A model generated the notes under the pieces. That model did no database searches and was not told the DNA's origin. It saw nothing but the letters and a program-made list of their open reading frames with translations. Shown here in pieces: positions 10,491 to 64,000 of a DNA stretch of 64,000 nt. The stretch's first letter is position 1. Every line of letters starts with the position of its first letter. The stretch spans positions 3,663,001-3,727,000 of the forward strand of contig OX419756.1 in NCBI GenBank assembly GCA_948567375.1, read 5' to 3'. A program made the position numbers and the translations under genes. This stretch comes from Lunularia cruciata (lineage: Eukaryota > Streptophyta > Marchantiopsida > Lunulariales > Lunulariaceae).

Positions 10491-10514
10491 GAAGAGAATT
10501 GGAGGAGTTAGCAA

Positions 10515-11470: not shown

Positions 11471-11497
11471 ACCTTGCCATTGCAATCTCATATTGCC

Positions 11498-12640: not shown

Positions 12641-12671
12641 AAGGTGAAGGTGAAGTATATGATATATATAT

Positions 12672-13405: not shown

Positions 13406-13612
13406 TGATATATATATATTTATATTTATCAAGTAGGATTCCGTAACAAAAATATGGTATACAGGTGTCCAAGAAAAGCTACCGGTGGGCTCGAACCGGA
13501 GCTCCACGCCTGGCAGAAAGCAAGGATGTTCTTTAGTCTCTATAGATACTAAACCCATGATAAGCATGGAAATTTTTTCATTTGTGTGGTATAAAGGCCT
13601 CCGTGCCAACAG
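13406..13612. other. Insert between R1 copies with a tRNA B-box-like motif
   Basis: On the minus strand near 13485-13497 the sequence GGTTCGAGCCC fits the RNA polymerase III B-box consensus exactly. No A-box at the right distance and no cloverleaf is visible, so this is at most a tRNA or SINE fragment. Confidence 0.3.
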
Positions 13613-15050: not shown

Positions 15051-16394
15051 AATAGTACCATGATGTCGCGGACGGTTATTTCCGGTGTGATTCATATGTA
15101 GCTGATATAGAGTGAGTCCGATCATGTTCAACCTTGATAGAATTGCATAGCGTTCTCCACTCATCATAGTATTGGTGCATTGGACACAAGTATCACATCT
15201 ATCACAACTATCAAGAATCACTAATAAGGGCTGGGATAAACCCTTAATGCTCTCTACCAGCATGAGCCCGTCATGATCAGTATTTCACACGGGAAGTAAG
15301 TGTCTTCATAGAAAGCCTGCAGTACAACACTGAACATTTCGTCAGTGCCGAGAGAGCGGGATGCGAATGCCAGTAACCATCGTCCCCACTTTGGACATTA
15401 CGTGTATATATCACTATCACATAGAAAGGTCTTACTATGTGCCAACCGTATCTGTATTGCTCGCATACCTCTTCCCATGTCTGTCCAATTTGTGAGTTAT
15501 TGCAAATGGATCCTTATGTTCATCAAAACTGCTTCATCAATATTCTCATCTGCCGGAACCTATCCACATCAGCTCAGTTCTGTTACATAAATTCGAGATT
15601 AATAGATCAAAAATTACCCAATAAACATCAACCGTCTATTCTCCAGAAAGTCCAATCCTTACCAATCTAGAACGTGAAGGCAAGTTTCTTCTTGAGCCAA
15701 ATGTGAATGGAACTATATTATTAGTTCGTATGAGGGAAATATTTTCCGAAGTTTCAACTTCACATAGCGTTCTTTGCGTCGGCACCACCAAGCTTGAAAT
15801 AGTGATCAATGGACGACAATACAAAAGTGCTTTGTACCTCCTTGGCTCTTGAGGATTACATATCAATGCCACCAGTATGACTAAATTTCTGAATTTCTAC
15901 GAGGTTGAGGTTGAAATCGCACTTCATTCCAAATAGGATTCCGTTGAATGCTGTCCTCTAGGCTGATCGTAACGCAAATATGTCGTACTTTTGACGGTAT
16001 CTTGGCCAATCTCTTGAAAGAACCCCTTATCATTCCTCAACCTGCACTTGCCAGCATCTGGATACGAATTAAATCCAGATTCGGAACATCAGCTGGATGA
16101 TGCTTGTTGAGAACAGTGCTCTCGACGATCTTTGCAGTATCACCACAAACGCTCGACTTCAACAAGCTTGAATGCAGTAATTCCTAGGCCAGTAGACAGT
16201 TGATTAGCGAAGAACGTGGGATACCGATGTCTACAGCGGGGAAACGGTCTTGTCCGTATCGAGGAACTAACAATTGGCTAAATCCACTGAGAAGCATACC
16301 ACGTACAACCAACTGGGACAACCGTCGCCACTGGAAGCAACCCAGTATTATCCGCCACGGCACCATCATGTTGAAGTAGAAGCTGAGGTTTACG
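15051..16394. other. Region downstream of COQ2, no recognised gene
   Basis: The base composition is near that of the gene regions, with normal CG content. Open frames on both strands are below 100 codons and unrecognised. The part next to 16394 should hold the COQ2 3' UTR. Confidence 0.4.
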
Positions 16395-19300
16395 CTACGT
16401 GACCAGCTTTCCTGCAACTATAGCACCACAAACAATTGCTCCAAACCATTTGTTCGACACGAATCTGTTCAAATGCGGCTGAGGTTAGCTTGCAACTGAA
16501 TCGCAAAGTGTATATCGTGTGCAAGCGAGGACAAGACCTCACAAATCTAAAATCTTCTAAGCGACACTTGATTTGAGCACACCTACTAAACTGATTCTCA
16601 GGACATTAGACCCTGCTGACGCACAAATGCGTAATTGGAGAATATGAAAGCTGAATAAGTGTAAAGCTTACTTGGAACTGCAGTCAGCCCGATTGTGGAT
16701 GTCCACGGTAGAAATCTGCCACGCTAAATGGCCTGCTGATGCAATCACACCTGCGTAAAATGGCCATCCTGCCATGTGGAAGATGACCAAACGAATCAGT
16801 TTCTGGATAGATTTACATGACTGCAGGTCTAAAATATAGGTATATGAGGGCAGAAGCAATTCTGGGAACGGGTGATCCACAACTCATGAAATGTAAATGA
16901 TCGGTAACCAAGATGTACTTTATGCACAATGCTAGAATAGTAATAAATCCACAAAGTAGGTTGCATCGAATGTAACCTGAAGAAAAGGCATAATTGCAAC
17001 AAATTGAGAATAACATATATCTAAAGGACTAGTAAACAACTTGAAATCGATAACAGCTATGCCAACGAATGCGAGAAATATAAAACGTTATGTAATTGAC
17101 CACCAGTAAGCAGTGCGTGAACAATGAAAATTAAACCGTAGGCTGGAGTCGGGTAGGAACACTGTAGACACGGGAGGTCGAACCATGAATTAGGCAAAGA
17201 GTGAAGGAAAAATAATGAGGGAATTAGCTGGGGAATGGAGTGGAACAATGCGAGAGCCTATGGATGGTGTTGCTGCAGAGACATATCGAAGTGTAACAGG
17301 GTAACGAGTGCAAAGCGAAAGAGGACATGATATAAAGTATATCGCAACAAGCGCTATGGACGCTCCAGTCCTGAGACACTAAACAGCAAAGGGAAGCAGA
17401 AGGCGGCCATACATGACTGCAGGTCTAAGATATACACATTGAGGAAAATGCTATCACGAATATCGATTAGGAGGAGACTCTTTGAATGCTTCTCAAAATT
17501 GATCTTTCACAATAGATTGCTAACCTACACACTAATGGAACCTAGAGTAGGAACGGTCCATAGGGTCCTTCAGGACACTACCAAACAAAAACAAGATACA
17601 AATCGTAGTATGTTACAGAACTGTTTTATATACAATCGTTCGTGGACCTTGGAAAGATTTACAGAAAGCAACAGAATTGCTAATTTATTTGCAAGACTAT
17701 CAGTTCATTCGCTTACCAGCATAAAACTGGATCAGGACTTCAAGTTTCACCCTTTGGTTGTATAAATATTACTCACCAAGTTCCGCGTTGTAACCGGCTA
17801 GAGATAATCCAGCGACACAGGCAGCACTAAAACCAGCCAGCCAGGTTTTAGTCTCGTTACCAAATCGCAGAGCAGTTGACTTTACACCAACCTTCAAATC
17901 ATCGTCCTTATCCTGAAATTATGACAGAAAACGGCCTCAGATACTCGTGAACAAAATTCCGGTCCGGTCCACCATTCTATGTCGTGACGTTCTTTGCTGT
18001 ACCACATCACCACACTACTAGTTTCCTGGATGATTCAAATCAACGGTACTCATCCTATTTAATGCACATTGGACAAACGTATCCACATACGTCTTGGCCA
18101 ACCCAGCGTGTTTAGAACTCAGAAGATCATACCTTTGCAAATGCAATCTGTTAGTTTAGAAAATGCAAAGTACCTGATGAGCGTAGATAGTATCGTAAAC
18201 AAGGGTCCAGCTAACGCCAGAAGCATAAAGTGGAAGAACTACAGAAAGATCAAGGCCATCATGTACAGCTGCCCAGCCAAGCAGGGCACCCCAGTTGAAG
18301 GTCAAACCTAGAAAAGCCTGTGGCTGAGGTATAGAAACAAGAAAAGAAGAACCACTGTGTTAGTGTTTGATTCCATTCATGACTACCATGTACGCACCGT
18401 CTTCTTTACATTTCCTGGTGTGAGGTTGTTTGTTGTGGTCATATCCTCTTCAGCAAAAATGAGAATAAGATACTAGAAAACCTGTCCCAGCACATGTAAG
18501 AAGGAAGTGATGTCTATGAAGAACGATGAGAATCACACAATTTTATCACCATGTTATTTAGGAGTGATACTCACCCAGTAGGTCCACCTTTTCATTAGTG
18601 GATACGTGCCGACTAACAAAAGCGAGGATGCCCCTAATATTCGGCTGCACGATGACGGTCAAAACGCATGTCCATTGGTCTCTAATGTATGAAGGAAGAA
18701 AATTAAATCTCATTCTTCCCTCACTTGCCTTCTTACATCTACCTTTGGATTTCATGACCTTTCATTCCAAGTTCTAAATTCCAGCCGAAGAGAATTCACT
18801 GTGCTTCCAGTATGGTAATTCAACCCACGCGATCACAGTGACAAGTATACAGTAAGAGAAAGGAGCAACACATTTGTTCCCTTCATCGCGGGAAGGTAAG
18901 AGAAACAATGACACGAGAGCAGACTCACATTTAGAAAGTCATGGAAATTAAAAAGAACTGGTAACTAACCTGAAGTCATTAAGCTGGAGAAGAACCCCGA
19001 GCCCAAGCAAAAGCTGACATCCCAGAAAGGTAACTCCTTGAAAAGTTGTCAAAGTTCCTGAAGCGATGGGTCGTTCTCGAGTCCGTTCAACCTACGCGAT
19101 AATACGTACTGTAACAAGAAGTTGATACTCGAGTTCTCGACATCCAGCATTTTATTCAAGTAGACGTCCCAGAGGCCTTCCATACAATCATATGAAGAAA
19201 CGTTTCAAAAATCCAACACCGGGGAGTTCCCAGCTGCCTTGCATAGATGATGTACGCGTGTCCGGTAGTTTTGTACTAGTTGTTATCTCTATCAACCTTG

Positions 19301-20440
19301 TTCAAATCGGAATAAAAGCATCTAGAAGCTGAAACTAGTTCGACGAATGAGACACGGTTGCTCTGCTACTTCTACGGATGCTCACCTTTCCGTCAATATC
19401 ACTGTCCCATAAGTCATTCACCGTGCAACCCGCACCTCTCAGAAGAACGGCGCCTAAGCCAAACAAACTCAGCATCTTTAAGTCTGGGAAACAGCCTGAA
19501 GGTGCTGCTAAGCAGATGGACCTAGAAGACCAAAATACACGGAGGGTTATGGAAAGAACAGTAAAGATTACGTTCGTATCATCATCAGGGAAGTTCATAT
19601 AGAATGGGATGAACTCACACAACTGAATTCCCCAAGCAAGAGATAAGACTTCGGATTGAAGTCTGAAATAACTTCGACAAATTACTGCAATCCATAAGGT
19701 CTCTTACCAAAAGCAAGGCCAGGCAAGTAACCAAGTGCCAATAGGTCTGTCTACTCGTGCTAACTCAGCAAATGGTTGTAGACTTCTAGGTAAAAACTTC
19801 TTTGGCCATAACTCTTGCTTAAGACTGTCTCGCACTGGTGCTGTCTTCTCCTCCTGCTCATCAAGGTCACTACCTTCCCCTGAATCTGCAGTAACTTTTT
19901 TGCTGGTTGTGGAAAACGGGCGACCTTCGACGACGAATAGTGCAACAGATTTAGTCCTTGACTTTGCGACATGGACAATTTCATTAGGACAGATCGGGTC
20001 GAGTAAAAGAGACTCTTTGAAGTAGAGCTGCTTCTCAACTTTGGCCGACGACGCACATCTAATGTGGGGCAAATCCTTGTGGACTTCACGTTTGGCGTCC
20101 TCACTTTGAGCTCCTGAGAATGCTCCTTGTCTGGATGTTGTCTGTTTAAAAGAGAAAATATCAAACCGCGGTACCACCCGGACGTCCGACTGTACAAGAG
20201 CAAATCTCCTGGAAATCGTGTAAGATGGTCCCAGATCTCTCACTACAGGTTCATCAAGTAACGCCTGCAAATCTGAGGAGCATGTTCTCCATTCCTGACG
20301 TCGCTGCATGAAGCCCACCAGAACGAAGTCAGATCTAGTCCGCTAATTTCTCCACAAACTCACGAATACCCTTAAGCCCAGTGTCTAGAACTACTTACAA
20401 GATTCCTGGTGGTGCGGCGAAGAATTGCGCGCAGCGCCAT
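16395..20440 (-). CDS. COQ2: 4-hydroxybenzoate polyprenyltransferase, mitochondrial (ubiquinone synthesis)
   Basis: Nine exons join in frame without a stop: 20440-20399, 20303-19708, 19521-19386, 19091-18970, 18644-18575, 18323-18174, 17912-17777, 16768-16672 and 16464-16395, giving 472 residues. The enzyme attaches the polyprenyl chain to 4-hydroxybenzoate in the inner mitochondrial membrane, the first membrane-bound step to ubiquinone. Both aspartate-rich prenyl-diphosphate motifs of the UbiA family are present: NDLWDSDID in exon 3 and [13 protein letters not shown] across exons 6 and 7. Hydrophobic helices such as [14 protein letters not shown] and [15 protein letters not shown] segments surround them. 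The N-terminus ([14 protein letters not shown]) is basic and suits a mitochondrial transit peptide. Residues of about 15 to 165 form a long, poorly conserved presequence, which makes the protein longer than typical plant homologues of about 400. The intron at 16769-17776 carries an R1 retroposon. Exon limits are read from GT/AG and phase, not from transcripts. Confidence 0.93.
16838..17410 (-). mobile_element. 5'-truncated R1 retroposon inside a COQ2 intron
   Basis: This R1 copy has the terminal core at its left end (GGGCAGAAGCAATTCTGGGAA) and stops abruptly at 17410, in the middle of the longer copies. It is flanked by matching direct repeats: ACATGACTGCAGGTCTAA at about 16815-16832, continuing AATAT, and the same at about 17411-17428, continuing GATAT. 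A direct repeat of about 22 bases is long for a DNA transposon but fits target-primed retroposition. Insertion is in the same orientation as COQ2 and does not disturb the splice sites. Confidence 0.7.
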
Positions 20441-21548
20441 GGGGTGAGACAGTGGTCAGACACATATATCTCAAAGACCTGTTTGTGTAGATTAGGGGTG
20501 TACTTCCATTTTGGTTGCAGGTGGAAAAGCCTCAAATTCAGGTGAGACAGTGGGATTCGTTCTTCATTAACCGTGTTGTTGTGCTCTTCTCTGCTCCTTC
20601 CAAGCAGACTCGCACAGAAATTAAAGGGATCTGATGTGTCCGGTTCCTCACCAGAATAATAGCATGTCGACACTCAACAAAAGTTGTTGTTCCTTCAGAG
20701 TTGCAATGCACCGATGGTCTAACTCAATCTACTGCTACGTTCGTGGTTCGAATGCGCTGCATGAGAAAACCGGATGATTTCTGAAACCAGAAGAGTACCA
20801 AGTGTTTTGCTGAGGAATGTGGGGCAGATACCAGACCTCGAGTTATCGAACTCGAGTTAAATGTTCGTAGTTCGCGTGTGAAGCGAACTCCACACGAAAT
20901 TCCAGTGTGACATGCAGAAGGACATATATGTATTCAGTTTTCTCGGTGATTGTGAGCAGAGCGTGGAGTATGGAAATTAATCATTTTGTAAACGCCACGA
21001 CCTTTTCGTAGGAGATGATAATTTTAGACGGATCATAAGACATTTGTATAGTACCATTTATCTTGGGAAGATCCTTGATACTAAGGAGAATATGTCGTAA
21101 TTTAAGTTGTAGTTGATAGACAACCTATTCCAACATTTACTTATAAAGTCATTTCCTCATTTATTCGATGCATATTACCCATGTTCTCTCATTTACCATA
21201 GGCACTACCTCCCTTCTTCTTTACTAAAGGACCAACCTTATTTTCTTTAGTGTATTGTCCCCTACGGGAGGAAAGTATACTAAATTCATGGTACACTTCT
21301 CTTCCTCCAAAGAAGAGCACTATAGTGTTAATCGCAATTCATAAAAGGCTAAAAATACAAGGTCATGAATGTTCAACTTGATGAAAAAGATATTTTATAA
21401 TCAAGCCAATCTAGACCATGGTGTTTATTTCTTATCTATTTGCTAAATTCCTCAAAAACAAGTAGGTTCTGTTGCCAAAACATTTATTGAAGACCATCCA
21501 ATCCAACTCCAAGGAAGGTATGTTAGCTTTGGAATTACATCACTAGAG
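20441..21548. other. COQ2 upstream region and AT-rich intergenic DNA
   Basis: The part next to 20440 should include the COQ2 promoter and leader. No clear TATA box is seen. From about 21000 the composition becomes AT-rich. No gene is recognised. Confidence 0.35.
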
Positions 21549-21932
21549 CATAATGGAGAGAAACCAACTAGGAAACTTAGATAGACTTCACTATTTTAGA
21601 AATCAAACTAGAAGGATAATGAAAATAGGTGATATTGTGGACTGAAGGAGAAAATTGATGAACAAATTCAAAGATCATAATGGAAAGAAACCAACTAGGA
21701 AACTTAGATAGACTTCACTATTTTAGAAATCAAACTAGAAGGATAATGAAAATAGGTGATATTGTGGACTGAAGGAGAAAATTGATGAACAAATTCAAAG
21801 ATCATAATGGAAAGAAACCAACTAGGAAACTTAGATAGACTTCACTATTTTAGAAATCAAACTAGAAGGATAATGAAAATAGGTGATATTGGGGACTGAA
21901 GGAGAAAATTGATGAACAAATTCAAAGATCAT
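21549..21932 (+). repeat. Tandem array, 3 units of 127 bp
   Basis: Units begin with CATAATGG at 21549, 21676 and 21803, exactly 127 bases apart, and are almost identical (for example TGTGGACTG against TGGGGACTG in the third). The near identity in otherwise decayed DNA implies recent expansion. No open frame is maintained through the array. Confidence 0.9.
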
Positions 21933-25005: not shown

Positions 25006-28000
25006 ATGCCAGCTCCAATGGATAAAGATGTTAAGGAGCAGAAGAATCTGGAAGCGAAAGAGCTCTTTCTGAGAATTGGACTGGAGGATAAAACAGCTCA
25101 AAACGCAGTGGCCAATTCAAAAGTTACAGCTAATCTTATTGGCGTGATCACAGAGGTATGACCTTAGGAAACATTGCTAGTCAATACTCGACTCAATTGA
25201 GGTGCCTCCATATTTTAATATTTGGTTTATTTCTTTTACTCTGTAGGCGGGGCTGCAAGGGGGCTGTGAAAGGGCGACGGGAAATCTCCTTTATTCGGTA
25301 AGCTACCCTAAAATCCGAGCCTTCTAGTCGCCTTTACTATCATCTGTTCAAAAATCCCGATGCTAAGAACCGACCGAAGCGAGCGGACTGTTGTTTACAT
25401 CCAACAAGATCTACCGCTGACAATGGGAAGAAGACTGAACATCGCCCAAAATGATTCGGGGAGAATGAGTCAAGAATTACAGCTAATGCTTTCAACGTGG
25501 TACAACAGTTTGTAGACTTAACAATCTGTATTGGCGCTCGCAGATAGCTACCAAGTATCCCACCAATGCTTTGAATCATCGCCCGACGTTGCTGCAGTAT
25601 GTTACGGCAGGGACGGTAGGAGCGTTCATCGTTTTATTCAAGATTAGCAGCATGCCTTTATATTGGAAATTATGCGCATCTTCTCTTGTCTCATGTTACT
25701 CGAATTGAGCGTGCCGGAAATTCTTCTTTTCTTGCAGATCAAGACCATACCACAGGCTGAGGCGGCCTTCAGTTTTCTCTCCAAAGTTGGACCAGAACCT
25801 TTCGATAGCGCTGATTTCGAGTCAGCCTGTGGTGTCGGTAAGTCAAGAACTAAACTCCCAAGGGCTTTCAATAGAGAGCTAGCACTAGGTTGTTAGATTT
25901 TAGATTTGACGCTGAAGTTAACCCGATATCGTGTAGTTCTTCCACTGACCTTACTGATCTATCGCTCTTGCAGGGGTTGAAGTATCACGTGATGAAATTC
26001 ATGCTGCTGTGAAGGCTGTTGTTGAGAAACACAAGGATATGTTGTTAGAACAACGGTACCGCGTGAATGGTAACCAATCATGAATTCGGGATCCGCTGAA
26101 GCTCTTGGTTTTCTCTTTCTTTCTGTGCATGAGAGCGTCGCCTCTAGTTGCTAGTAGAAGACTTGTTGTAGGTTCGAAAAGAATCGGTCTACCAGACCAC
26201 AAGTCTTATACTATTGCTTATCTCACTGTCTTGCTCGAGTACAAATAATATACGAAGTGGACCACTAGCTCAACAAGAAGTTACTAAATGGTGTAATTCC
26301 CTCCTGGAGTCTGATATCTTTCCTTCGCAAGGTCAGTTAACATTTTTTGCTCTCTATGTTTTGTAGTTGGCCTTCTTCTTGGGCACGTCCGCGCAACGCA
26401 GCCTTGGGCAGATGGTAAAATAGTCAAGGTAAGCTGATTTTTTGTCATTGCATGAGGAAGGCTTGTGAGTATATGTTTACTGTTTAATTGGAAAGGAAGA
26501 CAGGACGAGCTGCGGTTAACGGACCTAGGTAAGTGTTTGCTTTGCAGGAGGAAATGGATGCACAAATTAAGGAGCTTTTGGGTGAGAAAACCGCAGAAGA
26601 TGAGAAGCCCCTCGTTAAGAAGAAAGAGAAAAAGCCCAGAGCGGAGCCCAAGAAAGAGGTATGCTCTCCAAGATGAGTTAAACCAAAGAGCTTCATCTTC
26701 CAAACTTACTCTACTGAAACACCAAGTTGACCTTCTCTTGCTTTTCGCAGGAAGCGACCGTGTTGGCTGGAGATGCCACATTAACAGCAGAGGAGAATGA
26801 TCCGTTTGCGATCTTCCCAAAACCGCAAGAGAACATCATGGTATGTGCCCCTAACTGTTGAGACTCGGGCAGTTCATTACCGATGTACTAATATCCTGCA
26901 AAGCAGACGGTACACAACTTTGCTTTGGGAAAATATGGCATTCAAAGTTGTGAAGCTGACCGTATTTCATATCAAGCAATTGAAGCAGTGCGTCGATGCT
27001 GTCATCACGTCATGTTTCCCTCTCAAGGTTACACTGGGTCGCACTCACAAGTACTGCATCACAAACATCATACTAACTCCTGTATGCAGACATGTGCATT
27101 CTCACCTCTCTAGGTAGCTGATAGTTATGACGATCTTTATGAGAGTCAGTCCTGTCAGACGTGGGTATGGAACCGGGTTGTTTACAACGGGTTCTGTATT
27201 TCATTACGTAATATGTGCCCAGACGTAGGTCCGATGTCCAATCCTGATTCACACGGCCAGAAGCTTAAGTCATGGATGCTGAACTAAGAATCGTTGAGGC
27301 TCAAAACTCACCGTCAGTAAAAGCGTTTCGGAATTGTTGCTGCCAAGGATCACGTAGACATTACGAACCCAAGGGTCAGTGTAGAAGGGTCCCGCACAAA
27401 CACACTTTCTTTGGCCGTCTTTCACCATGTGTGTTCAGTGTTGGGCTTCGCATGATGAATACGTGATACGTTGCATGCTGCTCCACTTGGTGGTGGACTG
27501 TATGGATTTCTTCTCTGCTGTTTCTATGATTAACAGTAGGCTATGAAAGTGTTGAATTATCTGTTTGGAGGTCCAGATTCTGCTTTTCATTTTGTAAATG
27601 GAGACTGCGTCTGAAATTTCGTAATATCAAATCTCTTCTGTCGGTTGACCAATTTCGCGCAATGAATGGTGCACATGTTGATTGACCACTTGTGATGTCT
27701 AAAATGAACTGAGTATCTAATAGTCATTCTCTTCATTAGTACAACTTGGGGTTCATTCCAGTCTTGATCTTGTGTCAAGATCAAGACTATCTGCCTTTGA
27801 AGCTGTCGCACGTATCGCGACACTTCCAACCCACTCCAAAACTTTCCTATGTTAACATTTTCTTGTCACTGGGAGATTAAGAGCTCTCGTAAAATTTTAT
27901 TAACCGTGTAGCAGGTTCTGAATCGAACAGGTACACACGGAAATATTCTTCAGCGATGGGTCAATATGGAGACCTCACAACTCTAAGGAGCGATTGGAGA

Positions 28001-31000
28001 AGCATCTGAAGGTTACCGGAGGAAAGGTCTTCACACGGTTTCCGCCAGAACCGAATGGTTATCTTCATATTGGACACGCGAAGGTATGGCTCATGGACTT
28101 GCTAGCCTTTGGGCACAAATCATTCCTGGAAAACAATATTCTCGACTGTTGTTCTAGTTCAGGTGTGTTATAAACAAGTAATTGCAAGATTCCGCATGCC
28201 ATGTCTTAGGTGCCGTAGTGGACGTTTGTAGTGGAGAACAGAAGGTGCTCTACAGCTTACACTACAGCCTTAAGGACGTGGCATGCGAAATCTAGACAGT
28301 GACTAGTTTATCTAGGGGTGACGTCCCTACGCACTATGCCGAACTTTCTCAAATCCCGCTTTCAACTGTTGTTTCGCTGTTGTAGGCCATGTACGTCGAC
28401 TTTGGTCTTGCCAAAGACACTGGTGGAAATTGCTACTTGAGGTGACCTGCCTAAGTCGTATTTGAAATTGCTGTAAAAAGTTCCACACCTGTATGTTATT
28501 GCACACACAACAATATTTATCTTATTCATCCTTGTAGTACTTGCCTACCGTGAGTTTGAAGTAAATGCTTAACATCAAAGCAGACTCCCATAGTATAGGA
28601 ATGTCCAAGGACTTGAGAGAATATCGGGAAGTATTAGAAACGTCTCTGAAGCTAATTGCACTGGACTTGTCGTCAGATTCGACGACACCAACCCTGAGGC
28701 TGAGAAGCAAGAATACATCGATCACATCCAAGAGATTATCAACTGGATCGGTTGGGAACCTTTCAAGGTTTGTTCTTTGCGTTTAATCGCATGTTCCCAG
28801 ATTATATGTACGTGAGCATGGACTAACATTAAACCTTAAAGTTGTACGCATTACCCGTCTCTCTCCCCAGGTATGAAATCAATCCTTGTCTCGTAACCGC
28901 CGTGCTTAATGCAAATCTGTGCTGGTGTAGATTCACCACACCGCTTGTAGTTGGTACTCCTGCTGAAGTAGTGAACCAAGCCGACTATGTAGGAACGATT
29001 GTGGAATCGTGGCCAAAATTTAAAACCATTCTTGTTGAGTGAGCGCAGATAACACACAGTAGCGATTACTTTCAGGAGCTCTATGATCTCGCTGTTGAGT
29101 TGATCAAGCGCGGCCGTGCTTATGTCGATCACCAGGTAATATTTTTCTGGAACTCTAGGCAAGGGATTTTAATCTGCATCACAATACATGTTTGTTAGCT
29201 TGTCACAGTAGAGAGAGAATGGCTGCAAGAATCTAGCGAGATGTTGTCATATAATTCCTAGTGTATATAGGCAAGTGCCCAACCAAGATGTCAGCTTACG
29301 TGAGATCTGTAATTTTAACTGTCATATCCCAGACAGCAGATGAAATCAAAATGTTCAGAGAGAAGAAAATGGACAGTCCATGGAGAGATCGCCCGATTTC
29401 AGAGTCTTTGAAGCTTTTTGATGACATGAGGCGTGGCCTTATTGATGAGGGGAAAGCCACCCTTAGGATGAAACAGGACATGAAGAACGACAATTTCAAC
29501 ATGTATGATCTTATCGCATATAGGATCAAGGTAACTTCTAGAACTTGCCAGTATTTTGATTGACTGCCAGAAAACACCTGTAGTAGTGTTTATTTATGTT
29601 TTTCAGTGGAGTGCTGATACCAGAATTGTAGATGAATACGAAGAATTTCCGCAAAGCTGAAGCCAAAGCCTTAAACGTAAAGATGTATGCGAAAGATGGG
29701 AGATCCTACTCAGTTTCCCCCACCTGCAGCTTTTCAGAATAGATGTACTTATTTTGCTCTCTAGCTTTTCCGCTTGAAGTTGAGAAAGAAGCGGCTTGGT
29801 TTTCAGTTTACTCCACATCCTCATGTCGGTGACAAGTGGTGTATCTACCCAAGCTACGATTACACTCACTGCATAGTCGATTCTTTGGAGAATATTACTC
29901 ATTCTGTAAGTAATCCTGCTACAAGTGGTGTAAGCCTCCCCCTCTCGATTGGATCAATTCACGGAGATAACCAAGATCTTGCATAAGCATTTGCATGTTG
30001 GCTACAACAACGTTTATGAAGAAAATCGTGGACGAGATTAGAATCTACACGGTACTGTGACTTCTCCTCTCTCTGTAAGGCAACTAACATTCTTCGTTGC
30101 GCAGCTTTGCACCTTAGAGTTTGAATCTCGCAGAGCTTCTTACTATTGGCTTCTGGAAGCTTTGGATCTTTACTTGCCGTACGTTTGGGAATATTCACGC
30201 CTTAATATTACCCACAACGTGATGTCAAAACGGAAGGTATGGGACAAGATCGAATTTGACTGATTGAAGTTTTCATCAATGTGGAGTGATGTAGACAAAA
30301 GATAGCAAAATACCTCTTGTGCACACGAATAGGATAGTCTCTCTTTCGGTCAATCGCGTCTTTCATCAGTAGGCGACATGTAATCACAGAGCGCTTTTGG
30401 CAGTTCTAATAGTCAATTTGTTGAATGAAAACGCTTTGCAGTAATAGGAAGTGATTATCCTCAACAGTAGACAAAAGTGCTTCGTTTGATGCCTTTGAGT
30501 TGCTGGTTCTTTATTGTTACTTCTACCTTTCGATGGAACCTTTCTTTTACTTTAATTTACTCTTCCTCTTAAATCAACTGAGTTCTGTCCGTCGACTCTC
30601 CATCCAACCCTTGGGTGGTTGGTTGAAGTTGGAGTTCATTTCACATATCCCATCGTATCCTATCTCACGCTTCGCTTCGACTCAGCCAAGACACCATCCA
30701 CTCCTCTCCCACTTCGCTCCACTCCACCCATCCTCATCTAATGCTTTGTATATTACTCTTAGCTCGATGAATGTCTTTTTCATGGTTCCTAGCCGACCTT
30801 CTATTTCAGATGCTTAAGCGGTCAAGTCTTGCTTATGGTTACACGAGGTATACTAGTTCTCTGCATTTGTTGCTCATGACATGTTTCAATTATGTCTTTA
30901 CTTTGGCATGTACATTCATGTGCATTTATATGCACTTAATGGGTTCTGGATCCCCCGTTCTCCGAACGGCTTCTGCTCTCATTTCCTCATATCCCATCGT

Positions 31001-33342
31001 TTTCTTGGAATTTTGGGAAATACCTATGGAGCAGCTAAATGTGCTAGTCACAGACAAGCACGTTAGCGCGTGGGACGATCCTCGTCTTATAACGCTGGCT
31101 GGACTGAGAAGGAGGGGTGCCTCACCTGAAGCAATCCAAGCGTTTTGTAGAGGAGTCGGCATCACTCGAAGGTACAGATGAATGACTTCTAACGCATAAG
31201 CTTTGCATAACTTTTTGAAGAATGCTGGATAGAAATCCTTGGCCAGGTTGATCGCTTATCAGGAAAATATACAGGACCCGAAGTTGCTATAGATGGGCAG
31301 CTATCAATTCAAAGGCTTGAAGTTGATATGTTAAAGCCGTACAGCGGATGAAGTTAGGTAGGCAGTACCTGGGTATCAGCATGCGTCTGACTGTTTTTTC
31401 TATGATTCTCGCTCCAGCGACAATTTGATAAGAACAGAGCTTCTTGAACACTTCATGAGAGATGACTTGAACAGAAACGCACCCCGCTACATGGTAGTGC
31501 TTAGACCTTTGAAGGTGAGCTAGATCATGCCTGCCTGAGTTGGGTATATTTGATGCTAAAAAGCCCATGCATTCAAGTCCTGTTTAGATTCTCGTGCCTG
31601 TATGCTCGAATTTCACGCTGAGATTCTCAGGTATCCTCTTCATATTCAAGATCTTAGATTTGAGCAGTGTTAGTGATGTTCTCACCACCCACCCTTGATG
31701 ATGGACCTTTGTGCTCTTTGTAAGGTGGTGATAACAAACTTGGAGGAAAACGTTGTGGAAGAGTTAGAAGCAAAGCCTTGGCCTGAGGCGAAAGAAGGCG
31801 AACGAGCCGCAGAAACATACAAGGTTAGATTTCATGTGCCGTGTCTATGTGGACCTTTCTCTCATGGATTCCGTCGAGATCAATTGTACGATTTGGACTG
31901 TCTCCCATGCGTGCTGCCTGCGTCGGTTCTGAGTTGTGTACTCTACACCTGGACAGATACCATTTTCTCGAGTGCTCTATATTGAACAATCTGATTTCCG
32001 CCTGAAAGATTCCAAAGACTATTACGGTCTTGCTCCAAACAAGAGTGTTATGCTCAGGTATGTTCTAGTTTTAGTAAATTTACTTACGGTTGCCAATATC
32101 TATATACGTTAATTCTTTAATGACTGGTTCTGTATGCCTTTGCTGGATATGGTTTCTTTTAGTAACTTGCTTGGGAGAGGTGTTGAGATTTGGAAAGTGA
32201 TTGGAAAATTAGACTTAATACGTTCCCACATAGAGAAGATAAGAACCAGATGCTTTCTAAGGGAATCCATTCAGCAACTGGATGTAAAGGTCATGCCACA
32301 TCTATCCTGTGCTCCTAATCTTTAACGTTCCTTATTCCAGATACGCGTATCCTATCAAATGTACTGAAGTGATCTTCGGAGAAGACAAAGACCAGATTCT
32401 TGAAATTCGTGCCGAGTATGATCGTGCAAAGAGTACCAAGCCTAAGGTTGTCTTTTCACCTCAAAATCACTGCTTTAATTGTAGTGGAGTTCATGGGTAC
32501 AAGTCTTTGTATGGAAACTTACTTCGATTTGTTGATGTGACTATGCAGGTTATTCACTGGGTTGCGGAACCTGCTAGTGGAGTAGACCCTATGAAGGTTG
32601 AAGTTCGATTGTTTGACAAGCTTTTCAAATCGGAGGTAATTTCTGCTTCTGGCCTTCTACATTGCTCGTCTCTATGTGCTGTATTCGTTTTGTGGACTTG
32701 GACTCTCGGTAAAACTTCCTCTTGGAGTCTCGAGTAAGTGGAGGAATTCATGTAACTTGAATCTCGAGTTGGACCCCGCGTGCTACCGAAATTAACCGAA
32801 ACACTAGCTGTATAATCATGGAGATCGTCCTACGCCAAGGATTCAGGCTTAATTTTGCTTACTCGACTCCCAAAACCTCTTCATTCTGCATTAGCTCCTT
32901 CGTCCTTTGGTTAGCAAGGACCTTTTGAAGGTTTCGTGCCAAAACGAAATACAATTATGGATTTTGGACTTGTGTCCGCAGAACCCTGCTGAGCTTGAGG
33001 ATTGGCTCGGCGATTTGAACCCCAACTCCCTTGAGGTTATCACTACTGCGCTGGCCGTCCCAGCTTTAAGAGGTGCTGTAGTGGGCAGCAAGTTCCAGTT
33101 TGAACGGCTTGGTAAGAAACTTTCCTTTATACACGTCAATGGAGTTGATCATGGATGCGAATTGCTTGTTTTTCAACAAGTTTTGTTGGTGATTGTGCTT
33201 GTGAAATTAGATGCTGAAATTTGCTTTCGTTTCCCTGTGGTCAGGTTATTTCTGTGTTGATTCAGATACAACCCCGGAGAAGGCTGTCTTCAATAGAACT
33301 GTTACTCTTCGTGACTCGTATACTAAAGCTTCCGGCAAATGA
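25006..33342 (+). CDS. Glutaminyl-tRNA synthetase, cytosolic (class I)
   Basis: The gene has 23 exons and 800 residues, close to plant homologues of about 795. Exons: 25006-25155, 25247-25297, 25544-25615, 25738-25837, 25974-26069, 26367-26428, 26548-26658, 26751-26840, 27931-28083, 28386-28441, 28677-28767, 29049-29135, 29333-29530, 29807-29905, 30105-30236, 31035-31171, 31418-31514, 31725-31823, 31957-32057, 32341-32446, 32549-32635, 32982-33111 and 33245-33342. All join in frame with GT/AG ends. It charges tRNA-Gln with glutamine in the cytosol. Exons 1-6 encode the eukaryotic N-terminal tRNA-binding domain, and exon 7 a lysine-rich linker. The class I signature [14 protein letters not shown] ends exon 9. 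The KMSKS-type loop reads VMSKRK at the end of exon 15. The C-terminal anticodon-binding beta-barrels follow (exons 17-23), ending DSYTKASGK. The intron at 30237-31034 holds a repeat. I assign the enzyme firmly; individual splice sites rest on sequence and phase. Confidence 0.96.
27151..27210 (+). repeat. Short intronic repeat shared with the CinA-like gene
   Basis: CGTGGGTATGGAACCGGGTT, then ACGGGTTCTGTATT, recurs at about 43970-44015 as GGTGGGTATGGCACAGGGTT, then ACGGGTTCTGTATT. Both copies lie in introns of plus-strand genes. It is probably a small retroposon fragment. Confidence 0.5.
30560..31015 (+). repeat. Dispersed repeat R3 in a synthetase intron, ending in the shared core
   Basis: Blocks such as CACGCTTCGCTTCGACTCAG, CCAAGACACCATCCACTCC, TAATGCTTTGTATATTACTC and TTTCATGGTTCCTA are shared in order with 42960-43190. 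The right end is the core GGGTTCTGGATCCCCCGTTC, CGAACGGCTTCTGCTCTCA, which R1 copies also carry. The repeat ends only about 25 bases before the acceptor of exon 16, so the core may now form part of the branch-point region. Confidence 0.65.
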
Positions 33343-58674: not shown

Positions 58675-59336
58675 AGCTGTCGTGCGTATATACATCGCTA
58701 CACAACATGCATCGCTGTCAACATCATACACTATAGAAGCACAACTCACACATAAGTCATACATAGACTCTAAAGTGCCACAATAATCAGATTGCTTAAC
58801 ATTCTCAACTCAACTCAACTCAGATCAGTACTTGATCTGTCACTCTATAAACTGCCAACAATTGGGCACTGATTACAGTCAAGCCACACCCACTCAAGCA
58901 TAGAGAATCCAGGTGACGCTTGCCGGCCTCTGTCCACCATAGCCAGGAACTCGAAGGCTCAACATAGAGAAGTGAGCTCTCTGGAGCTCACTTCGAAACT
59001 ATACCCCCTTCGAGCTAGCATTGGAACCCTAACGGTCCCACTGACGGCACACTCGATGGTGCAAACGGTGCAAAGTGACGGTGGGCCCCACCGTGAAGTC
59101 AATACCCCGAACACCAAATCAGACTGTCGGAAAGTAGTCCCTGAGAAACTACTAGAATAACTCTAACTACTATCACTGGAACTCCAGTGTCCGAGCAACT
59201 AGATGTGGAACTACAAATGGCATGACAGCTGTCGTGCGTATATACATTGCTACACAACATACATCGCTATCAACATCATACACTATAGAAGCACAACTCA
59301 CACATAAGTCATACATAGACTCTAAAGTGCCACAAT
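58675..59336 (-). mobile_element. 3' LTR of the methyltransferase retrotransposon
   Basis: On the minus strand the block begins TGTGGCACTTTAGAG just after a purine tract. A segment of 110 bases occurs at both ends, 59227-59336 and 58675-58784, exactly 552 bases apart and nearly identical. The LTR either contains an internal duplication, giving about 660 bases, or consists of two nested short terminal repeats. It contains two strong hairpins: AAGTGAGCTC/GAGCTCACTT at 58970-58993 and ACGGTGGG/CCCACCGT at 59078-59094. The inner boundary is well supported by the purine tract. The outer boundary near 58675 cannot be confirmed because the 5' LTR lies outside the window. Confidence 0.65.
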
Positions 59337-59348
59337 CGCCCCCCTAGC
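59337..59348 (-). promoter_or_regulatory. Polypurine tract (plus-strand primer)
   Basis: On the minus strand the sequence GCTAGGGGGGCG lies directly before AT and the LTR start TGTGGCAC. This is the expected position of the polypurine tract that primes second-strand synthesis in LTR retrotransposons. Confidence 0.7.
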
Positions 59349-59503
59349 TGGCGGTTAGGTCCCTCTAACTCCAGATAGCCATCTACTCTAAGTATATGGT
59401 ATACCCTCTAATGGGTAAAGATCAGGAGACCGGGTGCTATGGAGCCCCATCGTTAGTCGCCTGTCTGCAATCTATACCATATAAAGAATGAACTAGCTAT
59501 AGG
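59349..59503. other. Short stretch between pol stop and polypurine tract
   Basis: This is non-coding 3' internal DNA of the retrotransposon. I see no motif. Confidence 0.5.
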
Positions 59504-59640
59504 TCAAGTACATCTAGGACATAACCACTGTCCCTGAGGAACCACCGTGAGGGGAGGAGTCATACATGCCATATGCCATCCTCTCGAACAGCTATCACAC
59601 ACTAACATAGTAGCAGCTCCACCAGAAGAGCCACATAACA
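59504..59640 (-). pseudogene. PHD finger at the C-terminus of the integrase polyprotein
   Basis: The last 45 or so codons contain the full Cys4-His-Cys3 set in PHD spacing: CMLC, an 11-residue loop, CDSC, GWHMAC and, after GQW, CPRC. The conserved tryptophan two residues before the last pair is present. PHD fingers usually read histone H3 tails. Here it takes the place held by a chromodomain in chromoviruses, so a targeting role for integration is a reasonable inference. The finger itself has no stop or missing ligand, although the polyprotein around it is broken. Confidence 0.88.
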
Positions 59641-59649
59641 TACACCTCA

Positions 59650-60770
59650 AGCCTGCACGTACAAGTGCCAAGCTTGGGTCCATAGTACCATCAATGTTTG
59701 GGAGGTGGCATGGCGCACAATTGCGCACATGATCCTTCCAAACAACACCATCACGTCCTTCTAACACAAGGACTCCAGATAGCAAAACCTCGCGCACTCT
59801 CAAGATAGTGCGGCCTGTAGAAATATCAAGTGTCATTGGTGCTATCTGCTGTAGATATACATAGTCGCCTGGATGAAATCGACGGATCGAGGGTCTATAA
59901 CCTCCTCCTCGAATGGTAGCATAGCGTAAAGTATCTCTATGTTGAGCAATTGCCAAGTTCTCAAAGGCCATCGGCATCACTCTCTGAAAGATCTCTGCCC
60001 GTTGAGAACATGCGCTCATCCATACATCGGGGTCGTCCAAGTCCAAAACTATAGTAGCATCTCGACGAATGGCTATAGGTAAATCTGGATCTCGTCCATA
60101 GAGTAGAAAGTATGGAGAGAAAGATGCTAAGGAGGCTTGCCGGCTGAACCGATAGCCCATGGCCAACCAAGGTAATTGGAGAACCCAATCTCCCAAGTGG
60201 CCTCTCTACAAACCATACTTTCGCAATCCTCTCTTCACCGTCTGAACCACTCTCTCTGCTAAGCCATCTGCCTCAGGGTGATCTCGGGATGTAGTATGAT
60301 GATCAATCAAAGCCTTGTCACACAAGACCTGAAACTCCCCCAAGAACTCTGTACCCTGATCAGTCAAAACCTCAGCTGGTGCACCAAAATGACTAAGAAC
60401 TCAATCAAGGAACGAGTAAGCTGTCCCTTCACTAGACTTGTCAGGAAGTGCCACCAACTCAATCCACTTGGAGAAGTGCTCCACCATCACCAAAACATGC
60501 CAATGATGTCTCACAGTCAGCGATAAAGGTCCGGTGAAGTCCAAACTCCAACGGTAACCCAATCCCATGATAGGTAATGGATGATTGACGTAGGAGCGTA
60601 GGAGCATTGAATGATGCTCTAACTCGGTCACAAACCATACATCTGGCAACAAACTGCTATACCTCGGTCTGCATACCGTGCCACCAATAATGACTCTGGA
60701 GTAAGCTATATGTATGCTTTACTCCAAAATGTCCTAGCTCCACATGAGCATGACGGACCAACTGTGGTCT
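59650..60770 (-). pseudogene. Integrase domain, frameshifted
   Basis: The N-terminal HHCC zinc module is visible at about 60640-60760 (HVELGHFGVKH, then CMVCDR). The catalytic triad follows: the aspartate in LDFTGP near 60535, the aspartate in LTDQGTEF near 60350 and the glutamate in HPEADGLAERV near 60270. Then come LPWLAMGYRFSRQ, SPYFLLYGRDP and the C-terminal FHPGDYVYLQQ module near 59865. In-frame stops lie at 60771, about 60662, 60401 and about 60206. The family inserts reverse-transcribed DNA into the host genome; this copy cannot make a full protein. Confidence 0.88.
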
Positions 60771-61865
60771 CTATGATGGAAATGGTACTACTCGCACTCT
60801 ACCATCCTCCCATACACGCAAAAGGTGTCTACCCTCCAATCTGAACCGTCTGGCTTGCTGAAGAACACGGTCTCTCTCCTTGGCCCCAATTGTGCCACCC
60901 ACAACACCAGTCCGAAGATAGTCCATTACTAAGACATCATCATGAATGTCTTGCTGAACTGTACCAATATCTTCACTCTCTGGATCTGTGACTTCAATAA
61001 CTCCTCTTGTATGCGCTGAGAGGGATACCACCAAAGCCTCTACAAATATACACAGAAAGGCCGATGCATGCCAACCTGGCACCATCTCCTCATCTGTCTC
61101 ACCATGCCAACGTGCTCTGGTCTGATCCTGCTGGCTGGGACATGGGTTTCTACTCAACCCATCTGCATCACGGTTCACCACTCCAGGTCTGTGAACAACC
61201 GTGAAATCATACTCCTATAAAATCAGAGCCCATCGTGCAAGCTTCCTTGAAAGCTTGTCATACTTCATCAACCACTTCAGTGGCTGATGATCAGTGATGA
61301 GAGTGAAGGGGTTACCAAATAGGTAACATCAAAAATGTGCTACTGCCCAAACTGCAGCCAAGCACTCTCCCTCATATGAACTATACTTTGCCTCCGCTGA
61401 ATTGTTGGAGCGACTAGCATAGGCCACCACAAACTCCTTCTCCTCATCATCATGTTGGGTGAGCACCGCTCCAAGCCCCAACATACTCCAATCAGTGTGA
61501 ACCTGAAATGGTCGTCCCCTGATCGGTCTCCTCAAAATAGGAGCAGGTGTCAACCTCTCCTTGAGCTCTACAAAAGCTCTCTCATGCTCATCTCCCCAAC
61601 ACCACTCATGTGTAAGCTTGGTCAGCTTTGTCAAGGCCTTGGCAATGGCACTAAATCCTCTAACATAGTGGCGATAGAAGTTCGCCAACCCAAGGAATGC
61701 TCGCACTCTGCTCACATCCGTAGGCCGAGGAATACGTGCAATAGCCTCCACCTTGGTCTGCTGAACACCAAGTCCTCCGGGGTAGATAGTGTGACCTAAA
61801 TACTCAACCTGCTCGTGGAAGAACCTACACTTCCCAGGATGTAGTTTGAGTCCATGAGATCTCAA
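60771..61865 (-). pseudogene. RT thumb/connection and RNase H domain
   Basis: The segment starts LKLHPGKCRFFHEQVEYLGH and AFLGLANFYRHYVRGFSAIA, typical of the RT thumb and connection of Ty3/gypsy elements. RNase H begins at FQVHTDWSMLGLGAVLTQ with its first acidic residue and continues to YASRSNNSAEAKYSSYEGEC and ITDHQPLKWL. A TGA at 61329 and a TAG near 61215 interrupt it; both fit C-to-T changes of CGA and CAG. The tail to 60771 is a linker to integrase. Confidence 0.88.
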
Positions 61866-62635
61866 CCTCTCAAAAACCTCTCAAACACCTCCAACAACTG
61901 TCTCTCATGCTCCTCCACAAGAGTGCTATAGACCAAAATGTCATCAATATAACACCGAGCAAAATCCAATCCAGCTAGGATCCTATCCATGACCCTCTGG
62001 AACTCAGCAGGAGCATTCTTCAACCCAAATGGTAAGAACCTCCACTGATATAACACATCCTTGCCGTGAGGATCAATAGCCCAAAATGTTGTCTTGGACT
62101 TATCCTCCTCCTTGATCGGCAACTGATGATATCCCGCTCGAAGATCCAAAGTACTAAAGACCTTTGCATGCCCAATCGCATCAAAAATCTCCTCCTGTGT
62201 AGGCATGGCATACCGATAAGCCCTGGTCTGTCGGTTGATAGGACGGTAATCTCTACACATCCGCCTATCTATATAGTTGCCATGCATATCCTTCTTGGCT
62301 GGCATCACTGTCGCTGATGCATATTCTCCATGTGAAATCTCCACCAAACCAACCTCAAAAAGGTCACTACTCCGGCTCTGAATCAATATCCTCTCCATAT
62401 CACTATATCGATAAGGACATCGGAAAATAGGTGTGTCGCTAGTCAGCTCAATCCATATACCAGGTCCCTTCAGAGCACCCAAATCCTTCATACTAAAGGC
62501 AAAACAAATCGTGTGACTCCTCAAGAACCTCCAAACCCTCTGTCTTTCTTCTCCAGTAAGCTTGGGTCCAAGATCTGGCTCCCAAGTATCCTCTGTAACT
62601 GTAGTAGGAGTGGAAGACGTACTGACTGGCTGCTA
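61862..62635 (-). pseudogene. Reverse transcriptase domain
   Basis: The palm and fingers of a Ty3/gypsy RT are clear: CRDYRPINRQTRAYRYAMPT, then FSTLDLRAGYHQLPI with the first catalytic aspartate. Next come LPFGLKNAPAEFQRVMDRIL and CYIDDILVYS with the YIDD active site near 61940-61955. The region before RT (LGPKLTGEERQRVWRFLRSH) is the usual lead-in. A TAG in place of CAG at 62633-62635 separates this part from the methyltransferase part of the same frame. The 11-bp duplication at its downstream end breaks the frame. Confidence 0.92.
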
Positions 62636-62879
62636 CACTGGGCCCTTGGGAGCAATAGTGTCATGCTCCCGACCACTAGAGGTCCCAGCCTCTGTGTGGA
62701 AAACTCCCTCCACTCTGGCTGTAAGCTCCACACGTCCTCTAGCTGCATCCCATGTGGACCAAGGGTGTAATCCAAGTAGCCCACGCTCACCTGGATGGAC
62801 TCCAAGTAGACCACTCTCCCTAGTAGCTACTGGATGTGTCCCAAGAATACCATGTCCACTTGGTCCATTGCCCCCAGCA

Positions 62880-64000
62880 TGTGCCTGAATTGTCTCGATA
62901 GGCACAGGGCTCACAAGTGTCCGAGTGGTGATGCCTATCAAGCGCATCCTACGCTGCTCTGCCAAGCCAAGGCTCACAATCCAGGTCAAACAGTTCAGGT
63001 CCATAGCCTGACCTAACACCTGACACCTGGATACCTCTGACACTACTGGAACAGCGGTAATACCGGTGTGAAAACCCATTGCCCGCTCTCTCTCATCAGC
63101 GTTGGGCTCGACCAACTACTATAACTATGAGTCCCAAACAAGTCCAGGTCCTCCCTCTCGAAAAGCATGAGAGCCTGGGAAACTCATGAGGGTGGGAAAT
63201 GCAGCTCTAGGCTGTCCAACTAGGTTCACCACTGCCATAGGTGACCTATCAGCCACTACCACTGTCTGAGATTGACGCCCAACATCCAAGATATCATCAA
63301 CAAGAATGTGGTCTAGTCGCTGAATCCCATCATAACTACGCTGTAGAACCTCTCTGGGTAAAAGGTTCATCCACCAAAGGCGAAGACGATGAGCCCGTGA
63401 TCCCACTCTGGCTGCATCTAACAATATAGCAGGTCCCATCCAAGAATGGACCTGATGTGTACTCGCCACCACTCTAGTGCGAGAATCACCCAACAAAGGA
63501 ACGTTCTCCAAAAGGTAAGCTGGAGAAATAGACTGATGAACCTGGAGATGTCGTAGTATCCGTAACATCTCCCAAAACACACCAGAACAAGGATCCTGAA
63601 GACCCAAACCGCGGCCCACATGTGTATGTCCTTGACATGGCCATCCAGAAATCACCAAGTGAATAGGCCCATGTCTCTCTAGGTCATGCGCCCCCAGTAA
63701 GGAAATGTCTCCTGGTAAGGCCTTCTGGTAACCTCTGACTGCTGACATTGGTAATAACTCCGGTTACCGATAGGCCAAGTGTGCCACATGATGTAGAAAG
63801 ACTCACCTAGCAATCTCATCTCTCTCTACATACAAGTACCTCTGTACTCGTATACCTGCCTGTAACACCGCAGCTAGTTTGGTGCCGATCCCACCAAACA
63901 ACTCCAATAGGCATATCCCCTCTATTGGATATTGCCAAGCAATGAGTGTGGTATCCAAAGGTGTCAAAGCAATCGCCTCTGGAGGCTCATCCTCACACTC
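62880..64000 (-). pseudogene. C5-cytosine DNA methyltransferase domain in the retrotransposon (N-terminus beyond the window)
   Basis: The minus-strand frame shows the motifs of the family in order. Motif I is LLELFGGIGTKLAAVLQAGI near 63855-63905. Motif IV is ISGWPCQGHT with the catalytic cysteine near 63630-63650, and motif VI is LLENVPLLG near 63490-63515. Motif VIII is GSRAHRLRLWWMNLLP near 63360-63405. A target-recognition segment (AAFPTLMSFPGSHAFREGGP) leads to motif IX/X-like ERERAMGFHTG and LGQAMDLNCLTW near 62960-63085. The enzymes transfer a methyl group from S-adenosylmethionine to C5 of cytosine. Motif I and the segment after it resemble the DNMT3/DRM side, while PCQG is more like DNMT1/CMT enzymes, so I leave the subfamily open. 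Stops at 63803-63805 (TGA), 63764-63766 (TAA) and a TAG cluster near 63114-63127 break it. It is in frame with the reverse transcriptase. Confidence 0.87.

What the first reader, a model, noticed from the sequence alone, without database searches (positions are those of the whole stretch)
62880..64000. A retrotransposon that carries a cytosine DNA methyltransferase
The minus-strand frame contains C5-methyltransferase motifs I, IV (PCQ), VI (ENV), VIII and IX/X in the right order, and it is in frame with the reverse transcriptase that follows (both the 62633 and 62524 frames match that of 63748). Host DNA methylation normally silences retrotransposons, so an element encoding its own methyltransferase is unexpected. 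From memory, similar captures have been reported in a few algae and protists (work by de Mendoza and colleagues). I do not know of one in this arrangement in a land plant. A possible logic is methylating its own copies to limit expression or protect them.
Basis: partly seen in the sequence, partly recalled or inferred. Interest (0 to 1): 0.95.

Follow-up and report, generated by a model that had tools for sequence, protein, structure and literature searches.

The report
DNA-methylating retrotransposon in a liverwort
A decayed 'jumping gene' in a liverwort genome carries its own copy of a DNA-methylating enzyme, the kind of enzyme plants use to silence such elements, and relatives occur in other liverworts, mosses and green algae.

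Summary
The minus strand from beyond 64000 down to about 58675 is the 3' part of a decayed Ty3/Gypsy-type retrotransposon with a C5-cytosine methyltransferase domain (62921-63937) directly upstream of reverse transcriptase, RNase H, integrase and a terminal PHD finger. The enzyme is Dnmt3 class. The host is a liverwort. The methyltransferase is not a neighbouring gene or nested insert: the arrangement recurs in Marchantia, Closterium and an environmental element (L001). Relatives also occur in Calypogeia, Sphagnum and the green alga Cymbomonas; no named hit is a vascular plant. Methyltransferase and RT trees agree, so they descended together. New here: (1) in L001 the enzyme lies in the protease-bearing first reading frame, separated from RT by an in-frame UAG in a leaky context (UAG-CAR-YYA), and the window keeps that context; (2) a PHD finger ends the integrase; (3) a second architecture places the enzyme between RNase H and integrase. 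The window copy is dead; 8 of 11 premature stops fit C-to-T decay. The kind is known (KnitGypsy-Dnmt3, Klebsormidium, 2018). Presence in bryophytes limits a printed statement of absence from land plants. Self-methylation of cDNA is inferred, not shown. The 5' end was out of reach.

The parts
62921..63937 (-). Dnmt3-class C5-cytosine methyltransferase domain (C-terminal part of the first reading frame; Gag and protease would lie beyond 64000); five premature stops
   Evidence: fold of the Calypogeia relative
62636..62920 (-). C-terminal tail of the first reading frame after the methyltransferase (about 95 aa)
62633..62635 (-). In-frame UAG between methyltransferase and RT, followed by CAG CCA (UAG-CAR-YYA context)
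   Evidence: sequence; L001 has UAG CAA UCA at the same boundary
61862..62632 (-). Reverse transcriptase (PF00078)
61329..61880 (-). RNase H region (PF17919, PF17917); frame shifted relative to RT
60206..60718 (-). Two ORFs with the two halves of the integrase core (PF00665, each half below the family cut-off)
59504..60205 (-). Integrase C-terminal part with PHD finger at its end (PHD at 59510-59644)
59427..59462 (-). Non-coding box downstream of the PHD reading frame, conserved with L001
   Evidence: local score 47; best of 200 shuffles 35
59339..59347 (-). Purine tract CTAGGGGGG, also present in L001 at 6937
59227..59336 (-). Terminal repeat part B, first copy (110 nt)
58785..59226 (-). Segment A between the two B copies (442 nt); a single copy in the window
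59224..59233 (.). Palindrome GACAGCTGTC at the B/A junction, also in L001 at 7051; the second B copy ends inside it
58675..58784 (-). Terminal repeat part B, second copy, 97% identical; apparent right end of the element

Best explanation
This is the 3' part of a dead copy of a Ty3/Gypsy-type retrotransposon family of the green lineage that carries a captured Dnmt3-class methyltransferase. The intact plan, read from a related unbroken element, is Gag-like/protease/DNMT, a UAG in a leaky context, then RT-RNase H-integrase-PHD. Likely working: most translation stops at the UAG, so the methyltransferase is made in the amounts of Gag and enters the particle, while occasional readthrough adds RT and integrase. 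Inside the particle or nucleus the enzyme methylates CG sites of the new cDNA de novo; the PHD finger on integrase reads the histone H3 tail and steers insertion, so a new copy arrives already marked and in suitable chromatin. Shown: domain content, order, Dnmt3 class, recurrence, co-descent with RT, UAG context in two of two elements with DNA at hand. Inferred: readthrough, packaging, cDNA methylation, PHD-guided targeting.
For: Domains and order in the window and relatives: of 104 relatives, 29 hold DNMT and RT in one protein, DNMT before RT in 20 and after RNase H in 9; all 38 with a protease motif have it before DNMT. Unbroken L001: CCHC-PR-DNMT ends in UAG and RT-RH-IN-PHD follows in frame. 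24 of 35 CCHC/PR-DNMT proteins without RT end 40-140 aa after DNMT. Dnmt3 class: profile vs PDB 95.7 bits to DNMT3A, 45-56 to DRM, 39 to HaeIII; all 50 listed structural matches (of 176 at E up to 0.001) of the modelled Calypogeia relative are entries of DNMT3 proteins. Motif IV cysteine kept in 79 of 80, motif VI asparagine in 81 of 81. DNMT and RT distances agree over 19 elements, r 0.89, 0 of 2000 permutations. Host liverwort: glutaminyl-tRNA synthetase 82-83% to three liverworts, 73-75% to mosses. A Dnmt3 enzyme of another retrotransposon family (SymbioDIRS-Dnmt3) methylates CG de novo in yeast (PMC5890265, section 10).
Against: No activity data for this family. The nearest named kin, KnitGypsy-Dnmt3, gave no methylation in yeast, which its authors call inconclusive. 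The leaky-stop context rests on two DNA sequences; some environmental relatives run from DNMT into RT without a stop (P0198, P0199, P0201, P0203), so the arrangement is not universal. Gag, protease and the 5' end of this copy were not seen. The motif IV proline is replaced (11 Glu, 1 Asp) in 12 of 80 and one copy lost the cysteine. The PHD/integrase model is weak overall (mean pLDDT 62.6; PHD part 74-91) and the histone preference is a guess from relatives.
Confidence: 0.75

Rival explanations
1. The methyltransferase is a separate host gene or an unrelated nested insertion next to a retrotransposon.
For: In the window alone, a UAG and several premature stops break the reading between it and RT.
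Against: The same DNMT-RT adjacency recurs in Marchantia, Closterium and L001; DNMT and RT trees agree; the domain aligns without an intron and in frame with RT.
Confidence: 0.02
2. The methyltransferase serves a different purpose: protecting cDNA from deaminases or nucleases, marking rival elements or host DNA, or slowing the element itself so that the host survives.
For: De Mendoza and colleagues list several such roles and call the role unclear (PMC5890265, discussion). PMC6338049 speculates on antiviral defence by transposon-borne methylases.
Against: Position in the protease-bearing first reading frame points to a particle component acting on the element's own nucleic acid rather than a soluble genome-wide factor; this is inference only.
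Confidence: 0.3
3. Several independent captures of host Dnmt3 by Gypsy elements rather than one old capture, with the two positions (before RT, before integrase) marking two events.
For: Two architectures exist. The 2018 paper argued for an independent capture in the Klebsormidium lineage. No hit was named Klebsormidium.
Against: The DNMT domains form one family well apart from human DNMT3A, and the RT tree shows the same main splits, including the relocated group (support 0.99 for DNMT, 0.753 for RT). Host DNMT3 proteins of plants were not in the tree, so this is not decisive.
Confidence: 0.25
4. The UAG between DNMT and RT is ordinary decay, and the intact element has one continuous frame.
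For: This copy has eleven other premature stops, and several relatives do read from DNMT into RT.
Against: Unbroken L001 has a UAG at the same boundary in the same UAG-CAR-YYA context; this context makes up 7 of 7368 stop triplets in the window and 2 of 638 in L001, both strands, the boundary sites included; 24 of 35 relatives' first proteins end at the corresponding place.
Confidence: 0.1

Closest known systems
KnitGypsy-Dnmt3 (Klebsormidium nitens; de Mendoza et al. 2018, PMC5890265)
   Same: Gypsy domain set with a Dnmt3-class, non-rearranged methyltransferase inside the coding region of a retrotransposon of the green lineage; repeats described there as DIRS-like (figure legend), and the window's right end shows B-A-B repeats
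   Different: Described as lying in the Pol polyprotein ORF; in L001 it lies in the protease-bearing frame upstream of a UAG. 'PHD' does not occur in that paper's main text. Its figures and supplements were not seen; sequence relation could not be tested
SymbioDIRS-Dnmt3 and SymbioLINE-Dnmt (dinoflagellates; PMC5890265)
   Same: Retrotransposon-borne cytosine methyltransferase; SymbioDIRS also shows two domain orders
   Different: DIRS (tyrosine recombinase) and LINE elements; this one has a DDE integrase
Chromoviruses (Ty3/Gypsy with chromodomain; recalled)
   Same: A histone-reading domain after the integrase
   Different: PHD finger instead of chromodomain; carries DNMT
DNMT3A/DNMT3B and plant DNMT3
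   Same: Catalytic fold and motif order (compared with animal DNMT3 only)
   Different: No ADD or PWWP match in the relatives scanned; part of a retrotransposon polyprotein

Membership tests
Dnmt3 class of C5-methyltransferases | Closest to DNMT3 among solved C5-methyltransferases | tested here: met
   95.7 bits DNMT3A; 56.3 or less for every match not DNMT3; no match named DNMT1, CMT or DNMT5 among 56; all 50 listed matches are entries of DNMT3 proteins
Dnmt3 class of C5-methyltransferases | Motifs I to X in linear order (not permuted as in DRM) | tested here: met
Dnmt3 class of C5-methyltransferases | ADD or PWWP domain (companion domains, not needed for class) | tested here: not met
   no such Pfam match in the 22 relatives scanned or the window pieces
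Ty3/Gypsy LTR retrotransposon | Protease, RT, RNase H, then DDE integrase with H2C2 finger | tested here: met
Pfam was not run on L001
Ty3/Gypsy LTR retrotransposon | Two long terminal repeats and tRNA primer site | tested here: inconclusive
   5' end outside the window; right end shows B-A-B; L001 ends overlap exactly, so repeats are collapsed
DIRS-like retrotransposon | Tyrosine recombinase | tested here: not met
   DDE integrase follows RT instead; the part beyond 64000 was not seen
DIRS-like retrotransposon | Split direct repeats A1-ORFs-B1-A2-B2 | tested here: inconclusive
   B1-A2-B2 seen; A1 would lie beyond 64000
KnitGypsy-Dnmt3 | Gypsy coding domains with Dnmt3 domain | tested here: met
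KnitGypsy-Dnmt3 | Sequence relationship to the Klebsormidium copies | not testable with these tools

The most novel reading that the evidence does not exclude
One capture of a Dnmt3 enzyme by a Gypsy lineage before the split of green algae and land plants has been kept ever since as part of a two-part epigenetic kit: a methylation writer produced at Gag level through a leaky stop and a histone reader (PHD) on the integrase, so that each new copy is born methylated and placed in chosen chromatin.
Probability: 0.35. Interest if true: 0.85.

Novelty: new variant of a known kind. Interest (0 to 1): 0.66.

Why it matters
Retrotransposons are normally the targets of DNA methylation. A family that carries its own methyltransferase across liverworts, mosses, zygnematophytes and a chlorophyte turns a curiosity reported in one charophyte and in dinoflagellates into a widespread green-lineage strategy. 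[quoted passage not shown] Marchantia polymorpha, an experimental model, has long predicted first proteins of this kind (for example P0195, 1278 aa; its DNA was not checked), so function can be tested directly. The leaky-stop layout and PHD finger give concrete predictions on where and when the enzyme acts.

Tried and rejected
Host gene or nested insertion: rejected on recurrence in other genomes and tree agreement.

Alternative genetic code (UAG read as Gln): considered because several premature stops are UAG where relatives have Gln. Rejected because UGA and UAA stops also occur and the host is a liverwort, which uses the standard code (recalled).

Intron in the methyltransferase: a donor-like AGGTGAGT stands near 63805; rejected because the frame aligns with L001 through that place.

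TRIM insertion as the cause of the 110-nt repeat pair: no matching target-site duplication seen by eye; not pursued further.

Scans that led nowhere: viral contigs with the window piece gave no relative; with alignment A1 it gave 52 loci with short or weak matches, not examined one by one. Genome contigs gave six loci: L001 used, five weak ones left aside. ARAGORN found no tRNA in the window or L001. Rfam: no match in the window at gathering thresholds. For a PHD finger in a Gypsy integrase: searches (2 papers; 12 of 26 listed), listings only; Ginger1 DNA transposons have one (passages). For UAG readthrough in plant retrotransposons: no paper held all six terms. Most subscription papers and all preprints are outside that library.

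Not done: dN/dS (only two DNA sequences, too divergent); a tree with plant host DNMT3, CMT, DRM, MET1 and Klebsormidium copies (not obtained); search of the window's own genome (tool unreachable). Rows dropped: 25 of 106 DNMT sequences with fewer than 270 matched positions were left out of the tree; of 31 elements with both DNMT and RT (29 relatives, window, L001), 12 with short pieces were left out.

Full report
Observation. The minus strand of 62880-64000 holds a C5-cytosine methyltransferase domain in front of a reverse transcriptase. Pfam DNA_methylase matches the 212-aa ORF 63125-63763 with 30.1 bits against a cut-off of 22; RVT_1, RNase H and PHD match the ORFs that follow above their cut-offs, and rve matches in two halves below its cut-off. 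The domain proper covers 62921-63937. Motifs I, IV, VI, VIII, IX and X are in order and in one frame. The DNMT stretch has five premature stops and the stretch from RNase H to PHD six, with frame changes near 61880 and between about 60606 and 60580, so this copy is dead.

Host. Exon peptides of a glutaminyl-tRNA synthetase at 27.9-33 kb match Marchantia (83%), Riccia (82%) and Calypogeia (82%), then the mosses Ceratodon and Physcomitrium (75%, 73%) and others including vascular plants (about 69-73%) (best 120 of 8000 listed). The window is from a liverwort.

Relatives. Two protein searches gave 104 distinct relatives (60, 44 further among 56). By name: Marchantia polymorpha 20, Closterium 6, Sphagnum 3, Cymbomonas tetramitiformis 2, Calypogeia fissa 1, one 'Candidatus Obscuribacterales' bin, and 71 without an organism name. 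None is named as a vascular plant. The nearest are Calypogeia P0001 and environmental P0002 (70% identity). Both searches scored only about 8000 candidates and limited lengths, and saw predicted proteins only, so absence is weak evidence. No hit was named Klebsormidium, although the 2018 paper reports such elements there; its sequences may be too distant or outside the limits.

Architecture. Of 104 relatives, 29 hold DNMT and RT in one protein: DNMT before RT in 20, after RNase H in 9. Some of the 20 are gene models of annotated genomes and may be spliced artificially. All 38 with a protease motif have it before DNMT. A PHD finger follows the integrase in 11; of 12 proteins that extend more than 230 aa past the integrase, 11 have it. 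P0204 (1991 aa) and P0205 (1918 aa) show RT-RH-DNMT-IN-PHD; P0217 shows CCHC-PR-DNMT-RT-RH-H2C2.

An unbroken relative. L001 is a 9285-base contig filed under a cyanobacterial bin. Its two ends share an exact 127-base repeat, as in a circular assembly. It encodes a CCHC-PR-DNMT frame ending in UAG at 3489-3491 and directly in frame RT-RH-IN-PHD, 1047 aa. The stop context is UAG CAA UCA. The window has UAG CAG CCA at the same boundary. Both fit UAG-CAR-YYA, known as a leaky-stop context from tobacco mosaic virus (recalled). That pattern makes up 7 of 7368 stop triplets in the window and 2 of 638 in L001, both strands, the boundary sites included. Of 35 relatives with CCHC or PR plus DNMT and no RT, 24 end 40-140 aa after DNMT, 10 end at 0-11 aa and one at 160 aa. 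Against it, P0198, P0199, P0201 and P0203 read from DNMT into RT without a stop.

Class of the enzyme. A profile of ten family DNMTs scores 95.7 bits against DNMT3A, 45-56 against DRM, 39 or less against HaeIII, HhaI and DNMT2; none of the 56 matches at E up to 0.001 is named DNMT1, CMT or DNMT5. In the model of the Calypogeia relative the DNMT part has block pLDDT of 70-96, mostly near 90, and all 50 listed Foldseek matches (176 at E up to 0.001) are entries of DNMT3 proteins. The motif IV cysteine is kept in 79 of 80 and the motif VI asparagine in 81 of 81 aligned sequences; the motif IV proline in 68 of 80.

Descent. In a DNMT tree of 81 family sequences (window and L001 included, 25 short ones left out) with human DNMT3A as outgroup the window sits in a bryophyte-plus-environmental clade (support 1.0), and the relocated group is a clade (0.918); the root is poorly supported. 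For 19 of 31 elements with both domains (12 short ones left out), DNMT and RT trees show the same main groups; distances correlate at 0.89, not reached in 2000 permutations. Long co-descent is the simplest reading. Without plant host DNMT3s in the tree, a single capture is not proved.

Ends. Downstream of the PHD frame lie a box shared with L001 (score 47; best of 200 shuffles 35), a purine tract CTAGGGGGG present in both, then B1 (59227-59336), A (58785-59226) and B2 (58675-58784). B1 and B2 are 97% identical. The B/A junction holds the palindrome GACAGCTGTC, also at the corresponding place in L001, and B2 stops inside it. This B-A-B order fits the DIRS-like repeats stated for KnitGypsy-Dnmt3 (figure legend). 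It would also fit a two-LTR circle cut at the palindrome; that is my inference, and the left end is outside the window.

Decay. Of eleven premature stops (the boundary UAG not counted), eight sit where L001 or a nearer relative has Gln or Arg, as C-to-T change would give (and sequences, compared by eye); three do not. CpG observed/expected is 0.46 in the element, 0.60 in window 1-58000 and 0.82 in L001. This suits a copy that was itself methylated, not necessarily by its own enzyme.

PHD finger. By sequence it is nearest to CHD4, KMT2C/D, PHF12, DPF3, KAT6A, KDM5 and PHF21A fingers; by fold to PHF1, BAZ2B, DPF and UHRF1 (weak overall model). Many of these bind the unmodified H3 tail (recalled). 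Binding was not tested.

Mechanism. Inferred: the enzyme is made with Gag and packaged, methylates cDNA, and the PHD guides insertion. De novo CG activity is shown in print for SymbioDIRS-Dnmt3; for KnitGypsy-Dnmt3 the test was inconclusive. I give the identity about 0.9 and this mechanism about 0.35-0.4.

Literature. Seen: abstract, sections 9, 10 and 11 of PMC5890265 and passages; one part of PMC6338049 and passages; passages of PMC12344493, PMC6453930, PMC10952607, PMC9516144, PMC2836005. PMC12344493 says DNMT3s embedded in retrotransposons were reported in streptophytes and dinoflagellates. [quoted passage not shown] I found no paper reporting them in bryophytes (mostly listings).

Verdict. 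A real and well-supported feature; a new variant of a known kind, most interesting for its land-plant hosts, the leaky-stop layout and the PHD finger.

Noticed in passing
L001:1-9285: A eukaryotic-type, unbroken, apparently circularly assembled retrotransposon filed inside a cyanobacterial genome bin (CADCWO010000201.1); P0028 is filed under a bacterial bin in the same way. Probably contamination of the bins.
   Followed up: partly
P0204, P0205, P0206, P0213, P0216 (proteins): Sister architecture with the methyltransferase between RNase H and integrase, in proteins of 1632-1991 aa.
   Followed up: partly
P0212 (Cymbomonas tetramitiformis): Named by its source 'Methyl-CpG-binding domain-containing protein 9' but it holds DNMT, integrase and PHD of this family.
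   Followed up: no
P0220 (Cymbomonas tetramitiformis): RNase H-DNMT-integrase protein with ankyrin repeats at its N-terminus.
   Followed up: no
window 8382-17411: Cluster of related repeats, direct and inverted, 63-91% alike.
   Followed up: no
window 21545-21932: Three near-identical copies of a unit with 127-nt spacing.
   Followed up: no
window 17769-20342 (-) and 27922-33200 (+): Host genes: exons resembling a COQ2-type polyprenyltransferase (by eye) and a glutaminyl-tRNA synthetase.
   Followed up: partly
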